The notes under the pieces: model-generated
What the model was told of the DNA's origin: nothing
Seen by the model: the letters and a program-made list of their open reading frames with translations, nothing else
The model's database searches: none
Assembly (NCBI RefSeq): GCF_963675165.1
Contig: NC_087379.1
Location: 5,597,442-5,661,441, forward strand
Source of the DNA: Halichondria panicea
Taxonomy: Eukaryota > Porifera > Demospongiae > Suberitida > Halichondriidae
DNA length: 64,000 bases
Direction of reading: 5' to 3'
Program-made: the position numbers and the translations under genes
Part shown: one piece after another, positions 1 through 34,055 of the stretch
How the letters are laid out: each line of letters starts with the position of its first letter
Position numbering within the stretch: the stretch's first letter is position 1

Positions 1-2875
1 CCTCCAGTGGTGGCCATGCCGACTTTGATAATGGAGTTCAAGTGACTGTTCCAGCTAATGCTGTCCCAGCAAGGACCTCTGTGGTCATTAAAGTCCAACC
101 CAGCCTTGCCTCCAATGATGTGTTTGTTATGCCTGAGGGCATTCAGTCTGCCAGTCCGTCCTACTTGATCTCTGGTGAAGGTCTAAACGGAGAGGTGACC
201 CTGAGGATGGAGCATCATATACGAGTGTCCACCCAACAAGAAGCTGATGACCTCCTCTTTCTCCAAGCTGACTCGTCTCCCAAGAGATCTGGTTCAAACA
301 GTGTTTACGAGTACCAGGAGGTACAAAAGGGAAGGTCAGAGTTCCCTCCTGGAGGGAACACTGGGAGACTGACGCTGGGCACACGACTGAAGAACTTCTT
401 TAAAATTGGGAGGAGAAAAAGAGGTGATGATTTTAGAATGACTTCTGATTCCAAATATAATCTTTAATACATGTACAGGCAATACTGACAGTAACCTCTA
501 CACTGTCAGAGTCTACCGGTCTCCTCCACACACAACTGGGGACAGGCTAGCCGTCATTGTAGCCAGTCTCTGTGGGAGCTTATATACTAAGGTGTGGATT
601 GTATACATCGTAGATAAAATGTGTATTTTGTGCTTATAATGCACCTAATTCTACAGTTTCTGGAGACACTTGATAAAGTGATGATCCCACGAGACTACCC
701 AGAAGTGTCTTCAAAGTTAATTGACAGGACGACTCAAGAATCGCTGACGTTTTTTGATATGTGTGCCACTCTCAACATTGACCCAGTGCAGGGATGGTCT
801 GTGGAACCAGACAAGGAATTGGTAAAATGTTAAGCTGAACATACTCTTAAAAAATCATATTATCTTCATTTCTCAGATTTCGCGTAGTGAAGTGGATCAG
901 CCTGAGATGGAGAAATTCAGACCTGAGGATCTCCACAACTACCCTCCCAGGATAATCTGCAGGTTCTTCCCTGATCATGAGGAGAATGCTCCCAAGAGAA
1001 CCACCTGTACCATCTCCTTGTCTGGACTCCTGCCACAGGTCAAAGTTCATCTATCATTGATACCCACCCCCAAAGTTGCTGTGGATACTACTAAACTACA
1101 GGTATTCACGTTTGTACAGTGTAGCCTCTTGAAATGGTGTAGTGGGTACCTTTGGCAAACAAAATTTTGCTCCTTTGATAGATTTGTCCTCTTTGTTGAT
1201 TCAACTTGCACAGTCATGTATTAATACACACACAGTTTGTACAGTGAAGTGGTGTAGTGGGTACCCATTGGTAAATTAAAATTTACCCACTTGATATTAT
1301 AGCAGGCCCTTTTTAATTCAATTAGCACATAATTGCATGTGTATAAGTAAGGCACACATAGTTTTTGTTTATAATGTACATTGTCATTCCAATTTGTTTA
1401 GGAGGCCACTGATGAGTTGAGAAGGTCTGCCCTGGCAGTGAGTGACACACAACTTGGCTCTACTGTGAAGAGTGTAGTGTCTCTGATGGAGAGAATGACT
1501 GCTGCTCTGAGGTACCACTCAATTGTCTAGTGGAAGTCTGATTATCGTTTTTTTCTAAAGGGCATCTTCTCTGAGTGAGCTGACAGGTCACACTGACTCC
1601 ATACGGACAGAGATAAAGGCTGTCCTTGTAGTGACCAGGAGGGTTGTCGAGGAGTGCACAGTACAGAGCATCAGTGAGAACATGGGAGCCAGTCTGTCTA
1701 AGATGGAGACTTTATCTCACCAGCTTTGTATGGTGGCTAAGGTTAAACTGAGAAACTGTCTAGGTGAGAACGTGTGTTTATAATATCAAGTGTTAGCTCG
1801 CATTCTCAATGGTACAGACCGGTCAGAGGAGACAGTTGCTCTTGTTGACCTGGTGGAGAATGGAGCTAATCTGTTGAGAGCTGTGGACTGTCTACTCAGG
1901 GACATCCACACACTCAGTGGATTCAGCGGTGAGTGTACATTAATTGTCATAATCATGCTGTGTATTGAGGTACCTACCTATTATGTGCACATTGTTAATC
2001 CTCCATTTGTTCAATACCACATTCCCTATTTTTTGTGTATACTGTAAGCCATGTACTGGTGTGTTGCTAATTGTATCATATCAGGGTATTTCGATAATCA
2101 TTGCTAATTAATGCTTAAACCACGAATTTTGGAGGGAAATGTTGATATTATGTTTGAATTTTATATTCCAAGAGGGGGCAACCAAAAGCCTCCCTAATTT
2201 CCCCCTGAGATAATTTGCTAATATCCACGTACAGTCTTTGTCGAAATTTCCTTTTTTTTTTCTACTCCCAAAACTTAGAGCCAATGTATGTAGAGCTACT
2301 TTTTAGTTTGGTTATGACCTCCCGAAAGAAGCTAGCGTAATAGCTAGGTGCCATATTCCTTTCCACTTCCACTGCATACTATTATTTTGGTTCACATTAC
2401 ATGTACTGTACTTAGTGCTCCAGTGTGTGGGCGTATCATGCTCTAACCATTTCCTCTTTCACACAGATGTATTGTCATTGTATCGAGCTGCATGCAATCC
2501 ACGTACACCATTTCCTTTGCTGACCCTCACCCTATCCACACTACAGGCCTGGCAGAGAGGATAGACATTGAACACCCTCTACTCAACAACGAGATTGAGA
2601 CAACAGAGTTCGTATATTTGGCTGCACATTTCGACAACGTGATAATGTACTCTCAGATGTTGGGACTCAATCGTTCTCAGCAAGCTAGTGTGAGGCAGCT
2701 TCTAGTTTTATATGACATTCAAACGGCCATGATGGAGTGCTTGTCCCTGTGGCAGAGGAGTAACCCAGCTGCTGCAACTTATAGAACTCTTCTGAAACTA
2801 CTCGTAAGAATGAAAAAATATAACATTGCGAGTGATGTGTTCAAACATTGCCTTGAGAATAGTAAACTTACATAG
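1..2875 (+). CDS. Gene A: ZU5-UPA-like-death domain protein, 3' part (5' end outside window)
   Basis: The window opens inside a ZU5 exon. Exons by splice sites and by comparison with gene B: 1-423, 479-591, 657-821, 877-1101, 1402-1511, 1561-1763, 1818-1928, 2547-2875. Phases chain without a break to the TAG stop. The ZU5 part reads GGHADFDNG..VTVPANAVP and ends near SMEHH-type sequence. A UPA-like and helical middle follows, and the last exon (109 aa) has death-domain character (W-Q-R-S-N then TYRTLLKLLVRM). ZU5-UPA-DD modules occur in ankyrins, UNC5 and PIDD, where they mediate intramolecular closure and death-fold signalling. Compared with gene B, exon 4 carries two extra codons. The residues encoded just before 2547 are intronic, because the acceptor at 2546 keeps the phase. 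Ankyrin exons presumably lie upstream. The family call is good; ligand and function are unknown. Confidence 0.85.
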
Positions 2876-10800: not shown

Positions 10801-12130
10801 TGCTCTGAGGTACCACTCAATTGTCTAGTGGAAGTCTGATTATCTTTTTTTTCTAAAGGTCATCTTCTCTGAGTAAGCTGACAGACCACACTGACTCCAT
10901 ACGGACAGAGATAACGTCTGTCCTTGTAGTGACCAGGAGGGTTGTCCAGGAGTGCACAGTACAGAGCATCAGTGAGAACATGGGAGCCAGTCTCTCTAAG
11001 ATGGAGACTTTATCTCACCAGCTTTGTATAGTGGCCAAGGTCAAACTGAGAAACTGTCTAGGTGAGAACGTGTGTTTATGATATCAAGTGTTAGCTCTCA
11101 TTCTCAATGGTATACAGACCAGTCAGAGGAGACAGCTGCTCTTGTTGACCTGGTGGAGAATGGAGCTAATCTATTGAGAGCTGTGGACTGTCTACTCAGG
11201 GACATGCGCACACTCAGTGGAGTCAGTGGTGAGTGTACATTGTCAGAGTCATGCCATGTATTGAGTATTAAAGGTACCTACCTATTATGTTTTTATTTAT
11301 GATACTATTATGATAGTTACTGCTGCTCAACTGCAACCCCCCTCCCTCCGTTTCTTTCAGCTTCCATAACATGGCAGTTACAGTATAAGATACCATGTTT
11401 GAATTTTAAATTCCCAGAGGGGGCAAACCAAATGCAAAAGGAGGGTGGCAAAAGCTTCCCTAATTTCCCCTTGAGATTAAATTGCTAATATTCACGTACA
11501 GTCTTTTGTCGAAATCTTATAACTATATAATGTATGTAGAGCTACAAAATGCATCTTTTAGTGTTGATGTAGTTAAGTTATGACCTCCTGAAAGAAGCTA
11601 GCGTAATAGCTAGGTGCCATATTCCTTTCCACTTCCACTGTATTGTACATACTACATGTACTGTACTTAGTGCTCCAGTGTGTGGGCGTATCATGCTCTA
11701 ACCATTTCCTCTTTCACACAGATGTTTTGTTATTGTATTGAACTGCATGCAATCCACGTACACCATTTCCTTTGCTGACCCTCACCCTATCCACACTACA
11801 GGCCTGGCAGAGAGGATAGACATTGAACACCCTCTACTCAACAACGAGATTGAGACAACAGAGTTCGTGTATTTGGCTGCACATTTCGACAACGTGATAA
11901 TGTACTCTCAGATGTTGGGACTCAATCGTTCTCAGCAAGCTAGTGTGAGGCAGCTTCTAGTTTTATATGACATGCAAACGGCCATGATGGAGTGCTTGTC
12001 CCTGTGGCAGAGGAGTAACCCAGCTGCTGCAACTTATAGAACTCTTCTGAAACTACTCGTAAGAATGAAGAAATATAACATTGCGAATGATGTGTTCAAA
12101 CATTGCCTAGAGAATAGTAAACTTACATAG
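4865..12130 (+). CDS. Gene B: ankyrin repeat-ZU5-UPA-like-death domain protein (813 aa)
   Basis: Complete gene. Exons: 4865-4975, 5270-5368, 6074-6172, 7209-7307, 8300-8398, 8655-8744, 9150-9199 (acceptor could be 9138), 9256-9314, 9375-9860, 9921-10033, 10088-10252, 10313-10531, 10700-10809, 10859-11061, 11118-11228, 11802-12130. Phases chain exactly to 814 codons including the stop. Residues 1-37 are an N-cap (MASAELRLKIDDVARAGDLS). Residues 38-169 are four 33-residue ankyrin repeats, one per 99-bp exon (TPL.WAA..GHTDCVRELLSSGA). A shortened repeat covers 170-199, ZU5 about 250-400, a UPA-like and helical region follows, and a death domain fills the last 109 residues. The order matches vertebrate ankyrins in miniature, without signal peptide or membrane segment, so a cytoplasmic adaptor or sensor is likely. 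It is a near-identical duplicate of gene A from the ZU5 exon onward. Confidence 0.88.
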
Positions 12131-20957: not shown

Positions 20958-21739
20958 CTATAGTGAAAAATAAATGAGGGGGAGTCCCATATCGCTTCTA
21001 TATACATGCACCAGTGTCGCAGGATTCAGTTACCCCCGGTCACTATACTTATACTCCTCTACCTCTGAGCCACAGCCAGCCTTGACTATACAGAGCAAGA
21101 ATTTGACTGCATTGTTTGACCCCATGAACATGTAATAAGTCTACTAGGTCTATATAGCTATAGCTCAGCACAAAACAAAACTGTTCATTGCATCTGTATT
21201 GGCATTTGCTATTTTGCTGTTCAATAATTATGATTAATAACAGTGCCATGCAGTATAGGGAGTAAAAATATGAGCCATATTCCCTGGAAGTAAAATATGG
21301 CTCATATTCACTAGAAATCACGTAGGATACAGAAAATAAACAAGATGCATGCTCATTCACCCCGTGTGTTGCACAGCGGCAAAATGGATACAATACTGTT
21401 TACCATAATCAGGGGCGTTTCTAGAGATTGAAGCAGAGGGGTGCTCAAGAGCACAGAAAAAATGAGGTCGTGCGCATAGCGCGCGCGATTTTCCTCCTCC
21501 GCATTTATTGCGGTGCGTCTTTTACATGAATAGCGTGACAATAAGACATAATTATGAGTCAGTCATCTTGTAGGATCTCCATGCACTATTCCCCTGGAGT
21601 ACATCCTAGCAAACTGGTCAATCACTGCAATGGGGATGTCCAGTCAGTCTAGTGTTAGTCATTGCTTCACACACTTCACAGTATCTCTCAGTGGAGCAAG
21701 AGGTGACTTAGCCTCGATTCCAGGCCGCTTGAACAAGGC

Positions 21740-22525
21740 GGCCTGGTATAGCCTCGTTCCCAGGCCTTACTTTTTCTTGCTGTTGTCACTGTTCATCCAT
21801 AAACATAAGAAAGACATAGTGAGGCAGCAAAGAAAGAAATGGGCGTACAATTAAGAAAACGTAAGGCCTGGTTTGGGAAATCGCGTGATCCACAAGGATT
21901 TTTATGAACGTGGGCGATATGTAGCCCACAATCGTGACGTAAGGTATTCTCCCACGCATTCCGAGTAAGACTGTACTGCACTGTACTGCACTGAGACAAC
22001 CACCAAGCTGTGCTGCAAGTCAGATCAGAGAACCAGCGTGGCCAGCTCTGGTGGCAGTAGCTACCTGCTATATGATAATGATGACTAAGCTATTCTACTA
22101 TAGCATGTAGAAAGACACAAGAAAAGGTAATAGTGATAGAATCTAAACACACAATCTAGACTAGTAGATCATCTAGCTAAGCCTAAGGTATAGCTAGCTA
22201 TAGTGCTTGCAAACTTCCAGTTCCAAGTCCATGTCCAGCTTGCAGCAGGCAAAGTTTTACTAGTCGTAGACCTCTGCGTGGGCAGTCCAACATCTCTAGC
22301 TCAGTATGCCCACGCTCATTTTCACCCTTCTACCACCCTTCTACCCTCACGCGACTTCCCGATACAGGCTCTCCTTTTTCCTAACTTTACGTCTATTTCT
22401 TTCTTTATTCCTCCAATTAATACCGTATTTTATCTCATTGAACGAATAATACAGTATTTTATCTTATTGAACGATTGTGATAAAGAACAGAAAAAGGAGA
22501 GCCTGTGTAGAGGCTAGGCCTGGTA
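21740..22525. mobile_element. 768-bp TAGCCTCG-family element nested in the left arm
   Basis: Element 21749-22516 begins TAGCCTCGTTCCCAGGCC and ends GTAGAGGCTA. The 9-bp direct repeat GGCCTGGTA lies at 21740-21748 and 22517-22525. The right arm has the uninterrupted site. Related in sequence to 47459-48202 (both carry CTCTCCTTTTTCT-type stretches). Confidence 0.8.
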
Positions 22526-22526
22526 T

Positions 22527-23117
22527 ACCTTGTATTAGCCTCGATTTAAGGCCGATTAAAATACGGCCTGGTACCTATTGCAGGGGTGATAGTGCGCATG
22601 CGCTTCAAATTACCCGAACGTAAAACCTTAGTAAATTATCCGGAAATTAGTCCGTTTACTAAGAATATGTTCCGTAATACTTTATCTCAAAGACTGAGTT
22701 CTGTGAAGCTGTGGCTTATGCCGTCTATTGCGTTGGTCTAGAAGGCTTGAACACTAGTTTTAAGACAGAAGAGGCTCTCATCTACGTCTAGGATGGTCCT
22801 ATAGCCGGGTTGTCTTTGCGAGTGGCAATTTGAGGCACCACACACTTCCCATAGCCTGTACAGATCCAAGGTAAGACATCCTGACCATACAACCGTCATA
22901 GAGGTAGATGAGAACCTCTTCTGGCTTCAGACTAGTGTGAAAGCCTTCTGGAACAACGCAATAGAGAGCTAAGCTGATGTTACAAAGATAGAAAATAGAT
23001 GAAGAAATAGGGGATTCCCCAGATTCTGGTGAATAAACTAACGCATGCGCACTATCACCCCTGCAATAGGTACCAGGCCGTATTTTAATCAGCCTTGAAT
23101 CGAGGCTAACCTTGTAT
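22527..23117. mobile_element. 573-bp foldback MITE nested in the left arm
   Basis: Element 22536-23108 has inverted ends of about 68 bp (TAGCCTCGATT..AAGGC.GATTAAAATACGG). The 9-bp direct repeat ACCTTGTAT lies at 22527-22535 and 23109-23117. Its interior also folds back (about 22690-22790 with 22890-22975). The right arm shows the empty site. Confidence 0.82.
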
Positions 23118-23539
23118 GCGCATGTAGGACCAGAAAGCCAGAAATCGGAAAAAGCGGAAGTGAAGAGTAAATGAGTGGGCGTAGCAGGGCAATGCATTCC
23201 AAGGTTAACCCATGACTTTGCGCAGATGTAATGAGATGCTCTTGCCTGATCACTCAACTAGTATCAGTGTAAGTAAGTAGAAAGCTGGCCAGCCTAGTTT
23301 TAAGAGGCAGGTAAGTAGACTCTTCATTCTCTTCATTGTCTGCAGTATAGACTCGATAATATGGCTAGCTACTTGCACATGTCTGCAGTAGGCTATAGCT
23401 AGATGCACAATGACTGAATGAATTATGTCTGTACACTGAGCTAGATTTTGTATGAATTTAACACTATCCTTTTTTAAGGTGTGTTAATTCAGCCAGTCAC
23501 CTAACTCCTACTTATACTCCCCAATTTATTGTCCTGAGG

Positions 23540-24690
23540 TTATTTGGCTCTACTGAAACACGCCAAGCCACTTTTCTGACTTTCTGAGAGCCATGATTCG
23601 AGAACGGGAACTGGAATAATTATGTTCAGTCCTAATATAATATAGACAAGCACGTATCAGCCAATAAGTTATGTTGAAATACTCAAGTTACTTTAATCGA
23701 CTGGAACTTGCTAAGAAGCTTTTCTGACTTTCCGAGAGCAGTGATTCGTTAACAGGAACCCTGAAAATAATATATTCAGTGCTGGACTAGACATGCATGC
23801 AGATATCAGCCAGTATTTGATATAAATTATACTCAATTCTGAGGTTACTTTAATCGACTGGAACTTGCTGAGCACTCGTGACTTTCTGACTTTCCGAGAG
23901 CATGTGGTTCATTAACGGGAACCCTGAAAAATAATAATTATATTCAGTGCTGGTCTAGACATGCATGCATGCAGATATCAGCCAGTATGTTGATATATAC
24001 TCTTCTGAGGTTACTTTAATCAACTGGAAGTTGCTGAGAAACTTTTCTGACTTTCCGAGAGCAGTGCTTAGTAAACGGAAACCCAGAAAATATATTTAGT
24101 GCTGGTCTTAGACAAGTAGGTAGCAGCCAATACGTTGATACACTCTTCTGAGGTTACTTTAATCGACTGGGAACTTGCTGAGCAACTTTTCTGACTTTCC
24201 GAGAGCTATGGTTCGTTAACGGGAACCCTGAAAAATAACATATTCAGTGCTGGTCTAGACATGCATGCAGATATCAGCCAGTATTTGATATAATTATACT
24301 CAAGTTTACAATTCTGAGGTTACTTTAATCGACTGGAACTTGCTGAGCAAGAACTAGCTGAGAAACTTTTCAGACTTTCCGAGAGCAGTGCTTCGTAAAC
24401 GGAAGACCAGCAGGTATCAACCAATACGTTGATACACTCTTCTCGGGTTAATTTAATCGACTGGGAACTTACTGAGCAACTTTTTAGACTTTCCGAGAGC
24501 ATGCAGTGATTCGTAAACGGAACTTGACCCTGAAAATGTTCAGTACTGTTCTTAGACATGCAAGCATGTATCAACTAATACCTATAATTATATACCCAAG
24601 TTTACAATTCTGAGGTTACTTTAATTGAGTAGAACTTGTTGACTTTCCAAGAGTAGTGATTCGTAAACAGAAACCCTGAAAATTAATTTT
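23540..24690 (+). repeat. Left-arm tandem array, 8 units
   Basis: Units of about 110-165 bp, each with CTGAGGTTACTTTAATCGAC, GACTTTCCGAGAGCAGTG, GGTTCGTTAACGGGAACC and GTGCTGGTCTAGACATGCAT. The unit core GGTTCGTTAACGGGAACC is nearly palindromic around GTTAAC. The outermost unit is the most diverged and pairs with the outermost right-arm unit. Confidence 0.85.
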
Positions 24691-25452
24691 GTTGAAACAC
24701 CCCTTAATAATAACATTAAGGTAAATTCTATACCAGGATCCAACACAGTAATGATACACAAACAATCTTCATTATATAGTCAAGTCCTGTTGTGTATAAT
24801 TATATTATAGTCTACAGCTATACAATATAGATGTATATAGGTATATGGATAAGCAGGATGATATCATGAAGTAGGCAGATGATGCTGCAATACTAGAGAT
24901 TGAAGAAGATATGAGAGTGAGTGAGGAATACTCAGAATGTGCTGAATCAGAGGTATACAGGCATATATAGTTACAACATAAACTGTCGATGTGTACAATG
25001 TGTTAATTACGTAATGGTTATGCAATGTTTACTATGTTTATAGTTTTAGTTTTGTGGTAATACGTGCCAGGCCAGTTTCTTAAAATAATCGTCGCCATAT
25101 TGGAAGGCAAGCATATCCCTACCAACGATCGGAGCGCCCCAATGATAAAGGCTTACTACCATACACATATACCGTGACAATCTGTCAGTGGGTGAAATTG
25201 AAACCCATTAACCAACCAGAAAGAAAAGCGCATGTGTTACGTACAGAAGAAAAAGGATGCCATCGAAGGGAGATTAAAAAGAAATTCGAGCATTAGAGGT
25301 GCAAAAATAATTATATCAATAGTTCCTGACTCAACCAGAAAATCAAATTAAAGGAAGATTTGAGAAAACCATGCTTTAATAATTACGTCCAGTGCAATCG
25401 TTAGCATCAAGTTCTAATGAGCATGATAGACTATCCTGCATGTATAGACATA

Positions 25453-28380
25453 TAATTTAGGTACAATTGCAAGTAAATAATGTCTTGCGCATTGATGTCT
25501 TTTCGAAGTATCTCATTTTGCACAAAGCAACAAAGCAATCAGCAGTTGCGTCTCCAGATTTTTTTGCTGATTTTCGATTTTTGTTGATTTTGGATTTCTG
25601 GTTCGGCTTGAGTGTGAAAGATGTTCTGAGTTGTGTGTGTCACTATGACGCTGAAAGTGAAAATTGTTCGAAGCAGTGCTATATCATTATACTGAGACAT
25701 CTCAATCCCAGCTATATAGGGCAAGGTAACTGCATGCATAAATTGTTTTATGCTGTAATAATTAACAATGTGCATTCTATATATATAATTATATAGATCT
25801 GCTATAACTGCAATGCTGTTTAATTTAGATTCTGTGAGGTCAGTTGGTTGTATCTGTACACATTGATGGTGTCCTGCTAGCTTCGATTCCAGGCCGATTC
25901 GGCCTTGAATCGAGGCTAGTGTCCTGCATGTATGCATGCCTATGAGCATTATTATGCCTCGAGGCGTAGCCGCACGAGGGATACGGTAAAGCTGACTGTG
26001 TGTGTGTGTGTGTGTGTCTGTGTGTCTGTTCCAGCTGTAACTGCTCAACGGTTGCAATGCGACGAAAACTAACAGCTTCTATAGGCTTCTAGCCACGTTC
26101 TCTTGGATTTTGATTCGTGGATTTGCAAACTAAAGCTTCTTTCTCGAGTTATGGCTAGTTTGACTCACATTGAAGGCTGTTGCAGTCTCTTCAGAATCTT
26201 TCATAGCATCATCTGTCCGCACAAACTTTCTATTCAACATATGAGTTAGCCTTGCACTAAAGCGCTAGCTTTTTGTTAGCTACAATACTCAGAAAATATC
26301 TGTTAAAACAGCTAGCTAGCAGTAGCCATTTGTGAAATTGATCTCTTTGGACACACCCTTTAATTATTCCTGTGTATGTAATGCGCATGCGCGCTCATTC
26401 CCCACGTGTGAGAAAATAATAATATCCAAGATCCAGATCCAGATCCTCCTGGCAGAATCATCTTTGTCTTGAAGGCCTGGTAAGCCACAAAACATTACCA
26501 TATAACAATATAGATAACAATATGCATGTACACAGGTCTTTTCTTCTTAGATATTATATACACTGAACTACAGATCTTGGAAGAATCAATTTTCTTCTTT
26601 CTTGAGGTCCTAGTAAGCCACATAATACAACAATAGATGCATGTAAATAAGTCTTTTCTTCTCAGTGACTTTATATAGATAAGCTAACCTTTAATATAAA
26701 ATTCATTATAGAAACTAATATAACACTCTAATACTTTTCAGCGAAAGCAAAAACATGGCGAGAGGCATTAGCACAGCGCCAGCTTGAACACTAGTTTATA
26801 GAAGAATGGAGTTTGATAATGTCTTCGTTCTTGATGTAATCTGCTGAAGATGTCATGATCAGGTCATTAAATTTTATGTATATTATATGGGAACATGCAG
26901 ATAAAAAATTCCAGTAGTTTTAAGCATCTAATAGTGTCATACAATTTTTCTCACTTTTTTCAAAACTCAGCTAGTGTATTTAAATAATTATATAGGGCAT
27001 ACTCTTTCAAACTGGAAAAGCTCTGTTTCCTGTACTGTGTGCATGCATGTGAATAGCATTACACACTATTGGTGAACTGATAATTATATGAAAATTATGG
27101 CTGAGTGCATGTTATACATGTATACCCATGGCTATAACTATGCCATGGTATTATGTGAGATACCGTATATACGTATTGTGCTAGAAATAATTATTAGTTA
27201 CTATATCATTAATATATAGCACTATATACGTTAACGGCAAGAGTATAAATAATATAAGAAGAGAAGAGTGTCGAACTACCAATACCTCTATACACAAAAC
27301 TGTGCACAAAGTAACGTGATATCCTGTCAATTGCGCAAGCTTGCGCACACATTACGCAACGCACAGAATTTGTTAGCAGTGAGTAAAGAGTGGAAGTGAA
27401 GAGGATTAACCCGACTATTGTCTCTATTTATGATTTTTGTGAAAAGATCGTCTTCTATCAGTGTGTAGTGAGCAGCTCTGAACGTTGAACGCAAACGAAT
27501 ATAGCTAGAATCAGATGTCATTGTACATGCACCCCTAAAAACGTCACGGTTAAAATTTTCTAGGAGATTACTAGTAAGTTTACAGTATACTTCATCACGT
27601 GCGCGAGTCATGTTACTTTGTGTATGATGCCGCTGAGTATAAAACACATAATTGTAATGGACAAACACATTATAGGCAGATTGTTAACGCTAGCTATAGT
27701 TCTGGTAAGTTCTTATGCATGCAGTTCACGATACATCTGTTACAAGGGCATAGGTATAGTGGATTTAGAGAACAGCTTTTTGGGGTTGGCTGCTAGAGTT
27801 TGTGCTATAGGTTTTTGTCATAATCAATTTTAGGATCAGGGATTGGTTTTGTAATTGCAGTTCCTCTAGTTTGCATAGCTTGATAGTAGTGTGTATTTCC
27901 TTAATCCATGCAAGTTTTTAACGTTATGTCTTATTCCTTGGTGAACCAGTTAAGGACGCTGTTGTAGCCGTTGCATGTCTGTATATACAATAGCTGATGT
28001 TGTCTGTTTTTAGTTCTATATAAATAACATAATTATTGGGAGGCTTAGGGAGATGATTGGGTGGAAGTACTGCTAAAGTTATAATTATAGCTTGAATTGT
28101 AAAAAAAAGTTACTTATGGATCAAATATATAGGCGGATTATAACTATTATAGTTGGCTGTGAGAGAGAATAACACTAAGTGGTTGGAGTATAGTTATATA
28201 TGGTTGATCCACTACCGGCCTCTCTTGGTGTATCTGTTAAAATATATAAATCTAGAATATTGCCCTATATATGTGTGAGGGAGGCTATCAGTTGGATAAT
28301 TAAGTTTCAACGATACAACATTATTTTAACAGCCCCGGCCATAAATTATTAATTAAAGCCTGTCTGGTATGTACGTTGTA
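25453..28380. other. Central spacer of the foldback element
   Basis: Unique, AT-rich sequence between the arms. It contains a 41-bp insertion (25878-25918), a (GT)n tract near 25995-26020 followed by a stretch shared with 14520-14605, and several frames of about 110-170 aa that have no codon or domain character. I see no gene here. Confidence 0.6.
25869..25927. mobile_element. 41-bp minimal TAGCCTCG-family insertion with 9-bp target duplication
   Basis: Insert 25878-25918 is almost only two inverted ends (TAGCTTCGATTCCAGGCC and GGCCTTGAATCGAGGCTA with 5 nt between). The perfect 9-bp repeat GTGTCCTGC lies at 25869-25877 and 25919-25927. Confidence 0.82.
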
Positions 28381-29489
28381 TTATTATCTTGCTTTGTATG
28401 TCTACGGGATAGTCCATGCATAATGCTTATTATGAACTTGATGCTATAATTATATAAGGATTGCTTGAATGCATTGGATGGTTTATTCTCAAATCTTCCT
28501 TTGATTTTCTGGTTGAGTCGAGAACTATTGATATAGCACCTCATCTTCGCTAATGCCAGAACACTTCATGGAATCTCTTTCGTTGACAGACTTTTCGTCA
28601 ATGGTTGAAACACCTGTGGCTTGGTGTATTTAATTATAATTATGGTGTAAAAAATTATTGACATAATTATTCATTTTACATACTGACAGATTAATTGTCA
28701 CGGTATGGTCACGGTACGGCCACGACAGTAGTAAGTCTTTTTTATTGGGGCGCTCCAATCTTTGGTAGAGATATAATTATGCTTGCCTTCTATAAAATGT
28801 AAGCAACATAAATTACTGTGTCAGGAAGTGCTTTGGATGCATCAGAATCACCTTCAGCCTCACCCCCATTTTCCTATCGCCTATATAATTATATAGGCCG
28901 GCCTTGCATTACAGCTATATAGGACAATATATCTAGAGACGATGGTGTACAATCTACAAGCTTAACTATAGCAATTATCATCTACTTACAATGTAGTTTA
29001 TGTTGTAACTATATACGCCTGTATTTATCCAGTGAGAGTTTTCCTCATGCACTCTCTCTCATAACTGTCTTTCAATCGCAGCATCATCACTGCCTACTTC
29101 ATCGTCACTGCTCGTCCATATACCTATATTGTATATAATTATAGGACTGGTGTAGACTACGTATATATACACTGCCAGGACTTGACTATAATGAGGATTA
29201 TTTGTGTATACTGTGTTGCATGGATCCTGGTATAGAATTTAGTCTACACCCATGAGTGATGACACACACTATTATTATATCAAATTATCAAGACAATACA
29301 CAGTAATACATCTATTCAAGCAAAATCTATAGTAATTAGCTGCTGACAACACACTATATATAGATGCATGCATGGTCATGCAACAAACCAGGTGCACACC
29401 AGTCTATCAGCCCAGCAAAATGAAATTATATAGTATACAATTATATAGAGTCTACGTATAGTCCGTACACTTTGATTCAATCTCTATAG

Positions 29490-31720
29490 TCAGAACTCAA
29501 TATAGTTTCTCATGATTGAATCTTCTGTCACGAACTTACTCAAAAGGCTATCTTTGCACTGAGCCGTGAATAATAATCTTGCATCTAGTGAAATTGTAAT
29601 CAACATTTGAATTACTGCCCATGGAACGTCAAGAGTCGTTCTATAGTTGAGTAAAGTAACAATAACTGAAGGTATGGATGGACTGACTGCCTGCATTGCT
29701 TGTCCGAGAAATGCTTTTTATGAATTACAGTTGAATCACTACTCATGGAAAGTCTGAAAAGTTGCTCCAGGAAGTTCCATGCAGTCGATTAAAGTATAGC
29801 CTCAGAGTTGTAAACTTAGGTATATCAATATAATTATTGGCTGATACCTGCTTGTCTATAGGACCAGCACTGAATATATTTTCTGGGTTTCCGTTTATGA
29901 ATCACTGCTCTCGGAAAGTCAGAAAAGTTTCTCAGCAAGTTCCCAGTCGATTAAAGTAACCTCAGAAGAGTGTATCAACGTATTGGCTGCTACCTGCTTG
30001 CCTAAGACCAGCACTAAATATATTTTCTGGGTTTCCGTTTACGAAGCACAGCTCTCGGAAAGTCAGAAAAGTTGCTTAGCAAGTTCCAGTCGATTAAAGT
30101 AACCTCAGAATTGTAAACTTGAGTATACATCAACATACTGGCTGATATTTGCATGCATGTCTAGACCAGCACTGAATATGTTATTTTTCTGGATTCCCGT
30201 TAAACGAACCACTGCTCTCGGAAAGTCAGAAAAGTTGCTTAGCAAGTTCCAGTCGATTAAAGTAACCTCAGAATTGTAAACTTGAGTATATATCAACATA
30301 CTGGCTGGTATATCTGCATGCATGTCTAGACAAGCACTGAACATGTTATTTTTCTGGATTCCCGTTAACGAACCACTGCTCTCGGAGAGTCAGAAAAGTT
30401 GCTTAGCAAGTTCCAGTCGATTAAAGTAACCTCAGAATTGTAAACTTGAGTATAATTATATCAACATACTGGCTGATATCTGCATGCATGTCTATAGACC
30501 AGCACTGAATATGTTATTTTTCTGGATTCCCGTTAACGAACCACTGCTCTCGGAAAGTCAGAAAAGTTGCTTAGCAAGTTCCAGTCGATTAAAGTAACCT
30601 CAGAATTGTAAACTTGAGTATATATCAACATACTGGCTGATATATATCTGCATGCATGTCTATATGCCAGCACTGAATATGTTATTTTTCTGGATTCCCG
30701 TTAACGAACCACTGCTCTCGGAAAGTCAGAAAAGTTGCTTAGCAAGTTTCAGTCGATTAAAGTAACCTCAGAATTGTAAACTTGAGTATATATCAACATA
30801 CTGGCTGATATCTGCATGCATGTCTATAGACCAGCACTGAATATGTTATTTTTCTGGATTCCCGTTAACGAACCACTGCTCTCGGAAAGTCAGAAAAGTT
30901 GCTCAGCAAGTTCCAGTCGATTAATTAAAGTAACCTCAGAATTGTAAACTTGAGTATATATCAACATACTGGCTGATATCTGCATGCATGCATGTCTAGA
31001 CCAGCATTGAATATATTATTTTTCAGGGTTCCCGTTAACGAACCACTGCTCTCGGAAAGTCAGAAAAGTTGCTCAGCAAGTTCCAGTCGATTCAAATAAC
31101 CTCAGAAGAGTATATATCAACATACTAGCTGATATCTGCATGCATGTCTAGACCAGCACTGAATATATTATTTTTCAGGGTTCCCGTTAAGGAACCACTG
31201 TTTTCGGAAAGTCAGAAAAGTTGCTCAGCAAGTTCCAGTCGATTGAAGTAACCTCAGAATTGTAAACTTGAGTATATATCAACATACTGGCTGATATCTG
31301 CATGCATGTCTAGACCAGCACTGAATATATTATTTTTCTGGGTTCCCGTTAACGAACCACTGCTCTCGGAAAGTCAGAAATGTTGCTCAGCAAGTTCCAG
31401 TCGATTAAAGTAACCTCAGAATTGTAAACTTGAGTATATATCAACATATTGGCTGATATCTGCATGCATGTCTAGACCAGCACTGAATATGTTATTTTTC
31501 TGGGTTCCCGTTAACGAACCACTGCTCTCGGAAAGTCAGAAAAGTTTGCTCAGCAAGTTCCAGTCGATTAAAGTAACTTGAGTATATCAACATAACTTAT
31601 TGGCTGATATACTTAATTGCTTGTGTATAGACCTGGATTGAACATAATTATTCCAGTTCCCGTTCTATAATCATGGCTCTCAGAAAGTCAGAAAAGTGGC
31701 TCGGCGTGTTTCAGTATAGA
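29490..31720 (-). repeat. Right-arm tandem array, about 13 units
   Basis: Same unit as 23540-24690 in opposite orientation. The CTCTCGGAAAGTCAGAAAAG core recurs at about 29741, 29909, 30051, 30217, 30381, 30548, 30718, 30884, 31050, 31203, 31365, 31530 and 31677, a period of about 165 bp. Central units are far more alike than the edge units, as expected for recent amplification by unequal exchange. Confidence 0.88.
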
Positions 31721-31765
31721 GCCAAATAACCTCTGCAGAGGTTATTGCAGAGGTTATTTGGCTCT
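31718..31765. repeat. Perfect 20-bp inverted repeat with 8-nt loop
   Basis: Arms 31718-31737 and 31746-31765 (AGAGCCAAATAACCTCTGCA and complement). It sits at the junction of the tandem array and the outer block of the right arm. The left arm has the single, unfolded version near 23540-23560. Confidence 0.85.
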
Positions 31766-32033
31766 ATGGACAATAAATTGGGGAGTATATGTAGGAGTTA
31801 GGTGACTGGCTGAATTAAAAATGATAATGTTAAATTCATACTAAATCTAGCTCAGTGTACAGACAAAATTAATTCAGTCATTGTGCATGTAGCTAGCTAG
31901 AGTCTACTGCAAACATGTGCTAGTAGCTAGCTATTATATCAAGTCTATACTGCAGACAATGGAGAGTCTACTTAAAACTAGGCTGGCCAGCTTTCTACTT
32001 ACTTACATAGACTAGTAGAGTGATCAGGCAAGA

Positions 32034-32877
32034 GGATATCAGTGGCGGATCCAGAGGTAGTTCGTTGGGTTCGTACGAACTACCCTTCCACTAAGTTGAT
32101 ACTTTATATTTAATACACCTGGCTAGCTAGCTAGCTAGCTAGCTTACTACTGTCATGACAATAGGGTACAAAGTTCTCTCTGCATAATGTGAGGGTGGGG
32201 CTGGTACTCTCTGCATAATATGAGGGTGGGGCTGGCTATATTGACTCATCCAGCCACATGGTCACAGTGATAATTGAGCCTGGCCATGAATCCTAACAAA
32301 AGGCTAGATTGCAACCCTCCATTGACTCCTGGAGTAAAGTTTCAGGTAAGGGAGAGTTCATGGCACTGCATACTGAATGATAGACACTGTATAGATTAAT
32401 TATAATTGCTATAATAATTATATTGACTAATATAATAATCTAGATGATGCGTCAAGTCTACAGCCAGTCTCCTCTTCAAGAGAACCACCAGCCACCATCG
32501 TCACTCCTCCAGTCATCAACGTCTCTCCTCCAGTCACAACCATCTTTCCTCCAGTCACAACTATCTCTCCACTGGAACCACCAGCCACCTCCATCACCCC
32601 TCCGTGTTCATCGAAGCAAGCAACGAGATCTTTCGCTGAGGATCAGCCAATGGACATTGGTGCTCTCCTGAAAGAGAAGAAAGTGCAATCACTATCCCAG
32701 AGCATGAGAATGGCTTTGCCTTGTGTTCTTTCAGATATTATAGTTGAAGGGGAATTTGGTTAATTAATGGGCGTGGCATGTAAAAGGGGGCGTGGTCAAC
32801 CCAAAAATTTCGGCGCTTCGCGCGGCCAAGAAGTAAGAACCCCCCTTCCTTAAATCCTGGATCCGCCCCTGGATATC
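32034..32877. mobile_element. hAT-like insertion in the right arm
   Basis: Element about 32041-32870. The ends read (C)AGTGGCGGATCCAGAG and CTGGATCCGCCCCT. The direct repeat GGATATC lies at 32034-32040 and 32871-32877 (7 bp matched; hAT elements usually duplicate 8). It contains a possible first exon (32287 on, MNPNKRLDCNPPLTPG) with a donor, and a Pro/Ser/Thr-rich stretch at 32444-32760, a probable remnant gene of unknown identity. The left arm has no such insertion. Confidence 0.65.
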
Positions 32878-32990
32878 TCTGTGCAAAATCAAAGGTTAAC
32901 CTTGGAATGCATTGCCCTGCTACGCCCACTCATTTACTCTTCACTTCCGCTTTTTCCGATTTCTGGCTTTCTGGTCCTACATGCGCATGT

Positions 32991-33634
32991 GTGTACATTA
33001 CCCCAAAAAGGGGGTAATCCGTGTATTTGTGGATACTGTCAGTAAAATAAACCGTATACTATCTGTATTCTGAAGTTAGAGTCCGTTACATAGAAGTATT
33101 GTGCAAAGATGACTGAGTTCTTACGCCCTTTATTGTATCAAGCCAAGTCTCTACTTAACGACACCCTACACTGTAAGGCTACAGATGTTATAGGAAAGGC
33201 ATGATGTGTTCCTGTGGGTCCCCTGATGAGGCTGTGGTAATATAGACCAGGCAAGTGTTCTGCTACTAAATCTTGCCTTTATGTTCGACAAGAAGTCATT
33301 GTTGAAGATAAAGAAGCTAATGATTACTCCTGAAAGCTTTTAATAAGCTTTAACTCGACACTCAGGAAGTTATTCACTCAAGATCTACTGATGTATTAAA
33401 GAGTCCACCACTCTTCCTAGCTGGCAGCTCTAGCTGTCTGGGAGGCTTTCTTAAACTGTCTCTCTGATAAACAGAGCTAGAAGAAGCAACACTGCTGCAG
33501 CATAATTATTCTACTTGATTAGTGGCTGCCATTGTGGTCACATTGTCCATACGTATTATTCCCTTTTGTAACTTTGTCCGTTTTTTTACAATTTGTATGA
33601 TGAAATTGTTGTCAATTATTTCGCGCATGCGCAT
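32991..33634. mobile_element. 628-bp insertion with 8-bp target duplication in the right arm
   Basis: The perfect direct repeat ATGCGCAT (32991-32998 and 33627-33634) flanks 628 bp that the left arm lacks; the left arm has one ATGCGCAT at the junction (23115-23122). There are no clear inverted ends, and the class is unknown. Confidence 0.65.
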
Positions 33635-34055
33635 ACAAGGTATACCAGGCCGCCTTGTTCAAGCGGCCTGGAATCGAGGCTAGAGGTGACTGCACTGGGA
33701 GAGTGCAGAGGTATTATGCATTACATAACAACATTGGAATGGCAATGCTGATTGCGCATGCTCAATTGGGCGTGGTCATGACTTGTCAAGATAGCTGCAC
33801 ACACATACCTCTGGAGCTGCACTATACATAATAGCTATAGCTAGCTACTGAGTGATAGGATTAGTTTCATGGTTGTCTGGGAGGACAGGGGGGTGCTCAA
33901 GCCCCCAAAGCCCCCCATTGTACACGCCACTGATAATGACAACATTATCATTATGGGAAATGATCGGGAATCTATAAGGCAACGATTAGATCTATTAGGA
34001 AAACAGTGTTTTTTGTCGCCTTCTATTAAAGATGGCTACGAGTTTAAATTTCAAC

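What the first reader, a model, noticed from the sequence alone, without database searches (positions are those of the whole stretch)
21700..33691. A 12-kb foldback element with FB-like architecture and an exact 9-bp target duplication
The sequence shows GAGGTGACT on both sides, identical inverted termini (TAGCCTCGATTCCAGGCCGC), long inverted arms whose blocks pair in mirrored order, and tandem subrepeats in each arm (8 versus 13 units). Drosophila FB elements have the same plan and the same duplication length. I know of no described sponge counterpart. No transposase is visible, so something elsewhere must mobilise it.
Basis: partly seen in the sequence, partly recalled or inferred. Interest (0 to 1): 0.85.

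Follow-up and report, generated by a model that had tools for sequence, protein, structure and literature searches.

The report
Integrase-type foldback transposon inside another transposon
A 9.9-kb 'foldback' mobile element in a likely sponge genome carries decayed, mirror-image pieces of an integrase-type transposase gene in its arms, sits inside an older unrelated short transposon, and is predicted to be moved by the enzyme of a full-length relative, one decayed copy of which lies elsewhere in the genome.

Summary
The GAGGTGACT duplication and TAGCCTCG... termini are those of a ~750-bp miniature transposon; solo copies of it in the same genome have exact 9-bp duplications in 15 of 18 spans tested. 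The real foldback element is window 23123-32981 (9,859 bp). It has ends TGTAGGACC...GGTCCTACA and a 6-bp target duplication, TGCGCA, and it inserted into that miniature transposon. The genome holds 22 end-to-end spans over 5 kb with these foldback ends. Of 15 spans checked, 12 have exact 6-bp duplications, six of them non-palindromic. Unbroken sister copies of the miniature transposon show the empty site. One span (C1:6310668-6322282) is the autonomous type: same ends, TGCGCT duplication, an intron-rich integrase-like (DDE) gene and an Ulp1-protease piece, though this copy is itself decayed. The inner mirrored arm blocks of the window element are inverted remnants of that gene's first two exons. 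So this is a foldback family likely built on an IS3EU/GingerRoot-like transposon, not on a Mutator-like one. The literature passages I read place foldbacks mostly in Mutator, with P as an exception. New variant of a known kind.

The parts
21700..21708 (.). 9-bp target duplication GAGGTGACT of the host miniature transposon (partner 33683-33691)
   Evidence: solo copies of the same family have their own 9-bp duplications
21709..21748 (+). left terminus of the host TAGCCTCG miniature transposon (continues, after nested insertions, at 22526-22535 and 23109-23122)
   Evidence: and sequence
21749..22516 (+). nested miniature transposon 1 (multi-copy: scored copies 96-99% identical over its first ~360 bp), duplication GGCCTGGTA at 21740-21748 and 22517-22525
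22536..23108 (+). nested miniature transposon 2, duplication ACCTTGTAT at 22527-22535 and 23109-23117
23117..23122 (.). 6-bp target duplication TGCGCA of the foldback element, left
23123..32981 (.). the foldback element proper, 9,859 bp, ends TGTAGGACC...GGTCCTACA
23123..23226 (+). outer terminal inverted repeat, left (pairs with 32878-32981, 96%)
23534..24686 (+). left array of about 115-180-bp tandem subrepeats, 8 units
24875..24952 (+). remnant of transposase exon 1 (81% aa identity to the autonomous-type copy)
25097..25642 (+). decayed remnant of transposase exon 2 (integrase core)
25878..25918 (.). 41-bp element made only of two abutting TAGC(C/T)TCG termini, duplication GTGTCCTGC on both sides; secondary insertion, within 25877-26784 which copies A, B and C lack
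27002..27085 (+). remnant of a later piece of the gene in the centre
28385..28852 (-). inverted second remnant of exon 2
29074..29112 (-). inverted second remnant of exon 1 (13 aa)
29733..31719 (-). right array of tandem subrepeats, 13 units
32041..32870 (.). secondary insertion of 830 bp (AGTGGCGGATCCAG...ATCCGCCCCT) with 7-bp duplication GGATATC; absent from copies A, B and C
32878..32981 (-). outer terminal inverted repeat, right
32982..32987 (.). 6-bp target duplication TGCGCA, right
32988..33682 (-). remaining body and right terminus of the host TAGCCTCG miniature transposon
33683..33691 (.). 9-bp target duplication GAGGTGACT, right

Best explanation
Window 23123-32981 is a foldback-type DNA transposon with a 6-bp target duplication that inserted into an older TAGCCTCG miniature transposon, and it is likely a non-autonomous derivative of an integrase-type (IS3EU/GingerRoot-like) transposon whose transposase is predicted to move it in trans. 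Shown: the two-element structure, the 6-bp duplications, the empty site in sister copies, 22 large spans with the same ends, remnants of the transposase gene's first exons in inverted order in the arms, and one autonomous-type copy with the same ends. Inferred: the transposase binds the ends and probably the repeated subunits of the arms, cuts the element out and pastes it at TGCGCA-like sites. Also inferred: the foldback shape arose when the end of an autonomous element carrying its first two exons was duplicated in inverted order, after which the gene decayed while the ends stayed usable.
For: Flanks of the 32 arm ends listed differ, by eye, immediately outside TGTAGGACC apart from a TGCGCA-like motif (four of the 32 face another copy of the element). 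In 15 pairs, same-strand 6-mers are 96% identical and 12 are exact, against a shuffled mean of 3.5 and maximum of 9 in 1,000 shuffles; six exact ones (AGCGCG, TACGCC, AGCGCA, TGCGCT twice, TGCGCG) are non-palindromic and so are not terminal repeat. Fourteen distinct sister miniature transposons carry the uninterrupted site. Window, A, B and C copies align at 86-94% over their long collinear blocks. Pattern search: 68 ends, control 0, giving 22 spans over 5 kb. Autonomous-type copy C1:6310668-6322282 with TGCGCT on both sides, predicted exons with an integrase core (Pfam rve, 27.1 bits, below the cut-off of 32.6); relatives P0001 (66% identity) and P0002 (54%) pass that cut-off. Exon-1 and exon-2 remnants in both orientations in W, A, B and C; an exon-2 match in 21 of the 22 spans, in both orientations in 7 at that threshold. 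Right-array subrepeats are 93% identical to the autonomous-type copy, left ones 84%, exon remnants 67-76%. The subrepeat core CGGAAAGTCAGAAA resembles the terminal CAGAAAGCCAGAAA, 12/14; 5 of 200 shuffles do as well.
Against: The autonomous-type copy is itself decayed (a frame break and a changed catalytic position), and only this one copy was recognised with these ends, so an active source was not seen. Three of 15 pairs lack an exact 6-bp repeat (5/6, 5/6, 4/6). The outer left arm is only 76% identical to the autonomous-type copy, no better than the exon remnants, so constraint on the ends is not cleanly shown, and gene conversion could explain the similar subrepeats. Exons 3-5 and the Ulp1 pieces were not detected in the foldback copies (E below 0.05). 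20 of the 68 ends are unpaired. No transcript or mobility data.
Confidence: 0.86

Rival explanations
1. One 12-kb Mutator-type foldback element bounded by TAGCCTCG termini and GAGGTGACT, as in Drosophila FB.
For: Exact 42-bp outer repeats and exact 9-bp duplication; 31 MULE (PF10551) matches exist in the genome.
Against: Arms of other copies end at TGTAGGACC with different flanks; TAGCCTCG ends occur as solo elements (592-1051 bp, mostly about 750) with their own exact 9-bp duplications in 15 of 18 spans; none of the 31 MULE matches lies within one of the 22 spans; the remnants inside are integrase-type.
Confidence: 0.03
2. Long inverted arms made by local inverted duplication of the locus or by an assembly artefact, not a transposon.
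For: Arms contain tandem repeats, which are prone to rearrangement; the array lengths differ.
Against: 22 spans over 5 kb on 11 contigs, 12 of 15 tested with exact target duplications, and empty sites in sister repeats.
Confidence: 0.02
3. The 6-bp duplication is right but the mobilising enzyme is not the IS3EU/GingerRoot-like one; the integrase remnants are captured cargo.
For: Only one autonomous-type copy with the same ends was found and it is decayed; no biochemical link.
Against: The same gene lies between the same ends with its own TGCGCT duplication; exon-2 matches are in 21 of 22 spans; a 6-bp duplication, with TG..CA ends occasionally, is what the literature gives for this superfamily.
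Confidence: 0.09

Closest known systems
IS3EU/GingerRoot DNA transposons (PMC10045372, PMC12730594; passages read)
   Same: 6-bp target duplications; integrase-type DDE transposase without an N-terminal zinc-binding (HHCC/H2C2) domain; TG..CA termini occur occasionally in GingerRoot.
   Different: Long internally repetitive arms and a foldback derivative family; TG..CA rather than the usual TA..TA ends; an Ulp1-protease piece in the autonomous-type copy. Tree placement not tested.
Drosophila FB (recalled), Tm1 of Meloidogyne (PMC3169594, passages) and Tetris (PMC4079207, passages): Mutator-type or presumed Mutator-type foldback elements
   Same: Long inverted arms with tandem subrepeats, middle domain, non-autonomous copies.
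   Different: 9-bp (8-10 bp) duplications and Mutator-type or presumed Mutator-type transposase there; 6 bp and integrase-type remnants here.
Galileo (P superfamily; PMC3573991 passages; PMC3688188 search listing only)
   Same: Foldback look produced by long arms that recruit neighbouring internal sequence; tandem repeats in the arms that can hold extra transposase sites.
   Different: P-type transposase and 7-bp duplications.
Mu killer of maize (PMC3440606, start of abstract in a search listing)
   Same: Partial inverted duplication of a transposase gene together with copies of its terminal repeat.
   Different: Mu killer silences MuDR; here it is a dispersed, mobile family, and no silencing was tested.

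Membership tests
Foldback (structural class) | Long inverted arms, internally repetitive, making up much of the element | tested here: met
Foldback (structural class) | Dispersed copies with target duplications | tested here: met
Drosophila FB / Mutator-type foldback | 9-bp (8-10 bp) target duplication of the foldback element | tested here: not met
   6 bp; the 9-bp repeat belongs to the host miniature transposon
Drosophila FB / Mutator-type foldback | MULE transposase in or with the same ends | tested here: not met
   none of 31 MULE matches lies inside one of the 22 spans
IS3EU/GingerRoot | 6-bp target duplication | tested here: met
   (12 of 15 exact); definition
IS3EU/GingerRoot | DDE integrase-type transposase core | tested here: met
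   rve 27.1 bits in the genome's own decayed copy (cut-off 32.6), 42.9 and 45.9 bits in relatives P0001 and P0002
IS3EU/GingerRoot | No N-terminal HHCC/H2C2 domain | tested here: met
   PF17921 absent from the translated exons and from P0001/P0002 at E up to 1, present in two control pieces from long-frame rve genes, presumed LTR retrotransposons (one of the two below its cut-off)
IS3EU/GingerRoot | TA..TA ends (TG..CA occasionally) | tested here: inconclusive
   ends are TG..CA, the minority type
IS3EU/GingerRoot | Transposase falls in the IS3EU/GingerRoot clade | not tested
   no reference sequences were on hand; NCBIfam IS481 is the best match but also for the two control pieces, all far below cut-off

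The most novel reading that the evidence does not exclude
A foldback family born from an IS3EU/GingerRoot-type transposon works as a dispersed, self-spreading 'Mu killer': its inverted copies of the transposase's first two exons are read into hairpin RNA that silences the autonomous parent, while its ends let it keep hitch-hiking on whatever transposase remains.
Probability: 0.1. Interest if true: 0.9.

Novelty: new variant of a known kind. Interest (0 to 1): 0.62.

Why it matters
[quoted passage not shown] Here the stages can be read in one genome: an autonomous-type copy, foldback copies whose arms still contain inverted pieces of the transposase gene, and spans reduced to two ends (82 and 154 bp). 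That makes the origin of foldback architecture testable from sequence, in a transposase lineage not named in those passages. It also warns that a perfect terminal repeat plus perfect target duplication around a foldback can belong to a different, nested transposon.

Tried and rejected
Rejected: a single 12-kb FB/Mutator element; a MULE source inside the spans. Tried and not decisive: the C1:10408186 span is a more diverged foldback variant (about 80% identical blocks) in which only exon 2, in one orientation, was found. PDB sequence search with exon 2 gave one match at E 0.93, meaningless. NCBIfam IS481 does not discriminate: P0001 63.3 bits, P0002 66.2, own exon 2 41.3, but two presumed LTR-type control pieces 34.1 and 33.7, cut-off 224. 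The resemblance of subrepeat core to terminus is only suggestive (5 of 200 mononucleotide shuffles), and conservation along the subrepeat was measured on units anchored at that core, which favours it. Species: for the window's HECTD3-like gene the matches that bear an organism name (hemichordate, lancelet, cnidarian, annelid and others) are 47-52% identical, while closer ones (58-99%) bear none (best 120 of 482 listed); this fits a sponge but names none. Other individuals could not be examined for empty sites; sister repeats were used instead. No listed title or abstract start describes a foldback element of sponges or of IS3EU type: 8 of 8 papers listed; 12 of 91; 12 of 22; open-licence PMC only.
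Full report
WHAT IS THERE. The window is G000:C3:5597442-5661441 of a 131-Mb animal genome. One search confirms long inverted arms inside 21.7-33.7 kb, in mirrored order, and one search confirms GAGGTGACT on both sides. TAGCCTCG termini, however, occur at nine places in the window (up to 3 mismatches), and the 38-bp terminus occurs 102 times in the genome (up to 3 mismatches), often as facing pairs spanning about 700-770 bp, with 0 matches for the reversed control pattern. Comparing the window with loci L021-L080 showed that window 32981-33682 plus the short piece at 21709 is one such ~750-bp miniature transposon. In 18 candidate spans of solo copies among L051-L080, 15 have identical 9-bp flanks; of the three others, two (898 bp in L055, 947 bp in L076) look like mispairings, since another pairing of the same copy is exact, and one (L070) matches 3 of 9. 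The 9-bp duplication is therefore this family's.

THE REAL FOLDBACK ELEMENT. Searching the genome with the arm (window 23110-23640) gave 309 matches, many in inverted pairs 7-10 kb apart (40 of 101 candidates scored). The flanks of these arms differ, by eye, from the base outside TGTAGGACC on, apart from a TGCGCA-like motif (32 ends). The element is thus 23123-32981. Its end pattern occurs 68 times (35 forward, 33 reverse, control 0). My pairing gives 24 spans, 22 of them over 5 kb (7.5-11.7 kb) and two tiny ones of 82 and 154 bp; 20 ends stay unpaired. Whole interiors were read for four foldback copies (window, A, B, C) and the autonomous-type one; one more (C1:10408186) in large part. I tested target duplications in 15 of the 22 large spans, those for which both ends were in hand: 12 exact at 6 bp, and the others 5/6, 5/6 and 4/6. 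Identity is 96% at 6 bp against 3-55% at the other lengths from 3 to 12 bp. Re-pairing ends at random gave a mean of 3.5 and at most 9 exact matches. Six exact duplications are not palindromic, which excludes a mere extension of the terminal repeat. Fourteen distinct sister copies of the miniature transposon carry the site uninterrupted, 12 of them as ACCTTGTATGCGCATGCGTGTACATTACC and two with one further change: the empty site. A second foldback copy (C5:2664938-2672577) also sits in a member of the same miniature family, at its other end, which again offers TGCGCA. In C5:3634627-3655132 two foldback copies lie end to end, sharing one 6-bp spacer.

ORDER OF EVENTS (inferred from nesting). The miniature transposon landed at GAGGTGACT. 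The foldback element then landed in its TGCGCA. Two more miniature transposons lie in the short left remainder (duplications GGCCTGGTA and ACCTTGTAT). Further pieces landed inside the foldback element (25877-26784; 32041-32870 with GGATATC). The window copy is longer than copies A (7,616), B (7,525) and C (8,319) mainly because of these insertions.

THE TRANSPOSASE. One large span, C1:6310668-6322282 (11,615 bp, TGCGCT on both sides), has a different interior. On its minus strand successive open pieces separated by GT...AG boundaries read as an integrase-type transposase (my reading; no transcript). Pfam rve matches at E 5.3e-6, 27.1 bits, below the curated 32.6; relatives P0001 (66% identity, 48% of query) and P0002 (54%, 45%) exceed it. 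Of eight pieces scanned, one more matches Peptidase_C48/Ulp1 above its cut-off (22.3 bits against 20.7, over 20 residues). This copy has a break of frame and a changed catalytic position, so it is probably dead. Its C-terminal exon has three other, more distant matches in the genome (38-43% identity).

WHAT THE ARMS ARE MADE OF. tblastn of the exons puts exon 1 at 24875-24952 and exon 2 at 25097-25642 on the plus strand, and again exon 2 at 28852-28385 and exon 1 at 29112-29074 on the minus strand; copies A, B and C also have both exons in both orientations. Exons 3-5 and the Ulp1 pieces were not detected in these copies; one later piece was (27002-27085). In the genome-wide search 21 of the 22 spans hold an exon-2 match, most of them with stops inside, 7 in both orientations at that threshold (145 of 179 candidates scored). 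The inner mirrored blocks coincide with these remnants. So in the foldback copies both arms carry the start of the gene, facing inward. The outer arms and subrepeats are most like the other end of the autonomous-type copy, so the exact rearrangement is not resolved.

HOW IT LIKELY WORKS. Shown: same ends, same duplication length, same kind of target as the autonomous-type copy. Inferred: transposase from such a copy acts in trans on the ends. Best-match identities to the autonomous-type copy are 93% for the right-array subrepeats, 84% for the left, 76% for the outer left arm, and 67-76% for exon remnants (partial matches); between window and copy A these segments are 88-96% identical. This fits retained function of the subrepeats or gene conversion between arms; the 76% of the outer arm speaks against a simple 'ends are constrained' reading. 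The core of the subrepeat resembles the element's tip, as expected for a multiplied binding site, and passages on Galileo and Tetris report the like.

COMPARISON. The passages read for IS3EU/GingerRoot give 6-bp duplications, mostly TA..TA and occasionally TG..CA ends, and no HHCC domain; the fungal IS3EU families have 6-bp duplications and TAYGG..CCRTA ends. The present element meets duplication length, integrase core and lack of the zinc domain; the ends are the minority type and the tree was not tested. It is therefore IS3EU/GingerRoot-like, filed as likely. It is foldback by structure. It is not a Drosophila-FB/Mutator element.

NOVEL READING. The layout (inverted duplication of the start of a transposase gene plus terminal repeats) is that of maize Mu killer (start of abstract in a listing). 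Against it: the longest perfect match between left and right exon remnants is 21 bp, and to the autonomous-type exons 32 and 18 bp, so strong silencing by this copy today is doubtful; the older state is unknown.

Noticed in passing
window 25878-25918; also C3:398831, C4:1679829, C8:2117307, C15:416367 of G000: A 41-bp element consisting of two abutting transposon termini with an exact 9-bp duplication (GTGTCCTGC) in the window; four more places in the genome match within 3 mismatches (their duplications not checked).
   Followed up: partly
window 4520, 7456, 13806: Further TAGCCTCG-type termini elsewhere in the window: the family is abundant; its transposase was not identified (9-bp duplications would fit Mutator, 31 MULE matches in the genome; no link tested).
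   Followed up: no
G000:C5:3634627-3655162: Two complete foldback spans and the start of a third lie end to end, separated only by the 6-bp duplication TGCGCG: insertion into their own target duplication or recombination.
   Followed up: partly
G000:C9:2276243-2276396 and C1:14421233-14421314: Spans of 154 and 82 bp with foldback ends at both sides: possible minimal derivatives.
   Followed up: no
window 32041-32870: 830-bp insertion with ends AGTGGCGGATCCAG...ATCCGCCCCT and 7-bp duplication GGATATC, carrying a 110-aa open frame (32431-32763); another transposon type.
   Followed up: no
window 2447-2875 and 11702-12130: Two nearly identical 142-aa open frames about 9.3 kb apart: a local duplication of a vesicle-trafficking-like gene (name from recall).
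   Followed up: no
L090 3192-4657 (minus): An Ulp1-type protease piece beside the integrase-type transposase, while a coral relative (P0004) pairs the same core with an OTU protease domain: such protease partners may recur in this lineage.
   Followed up: partly
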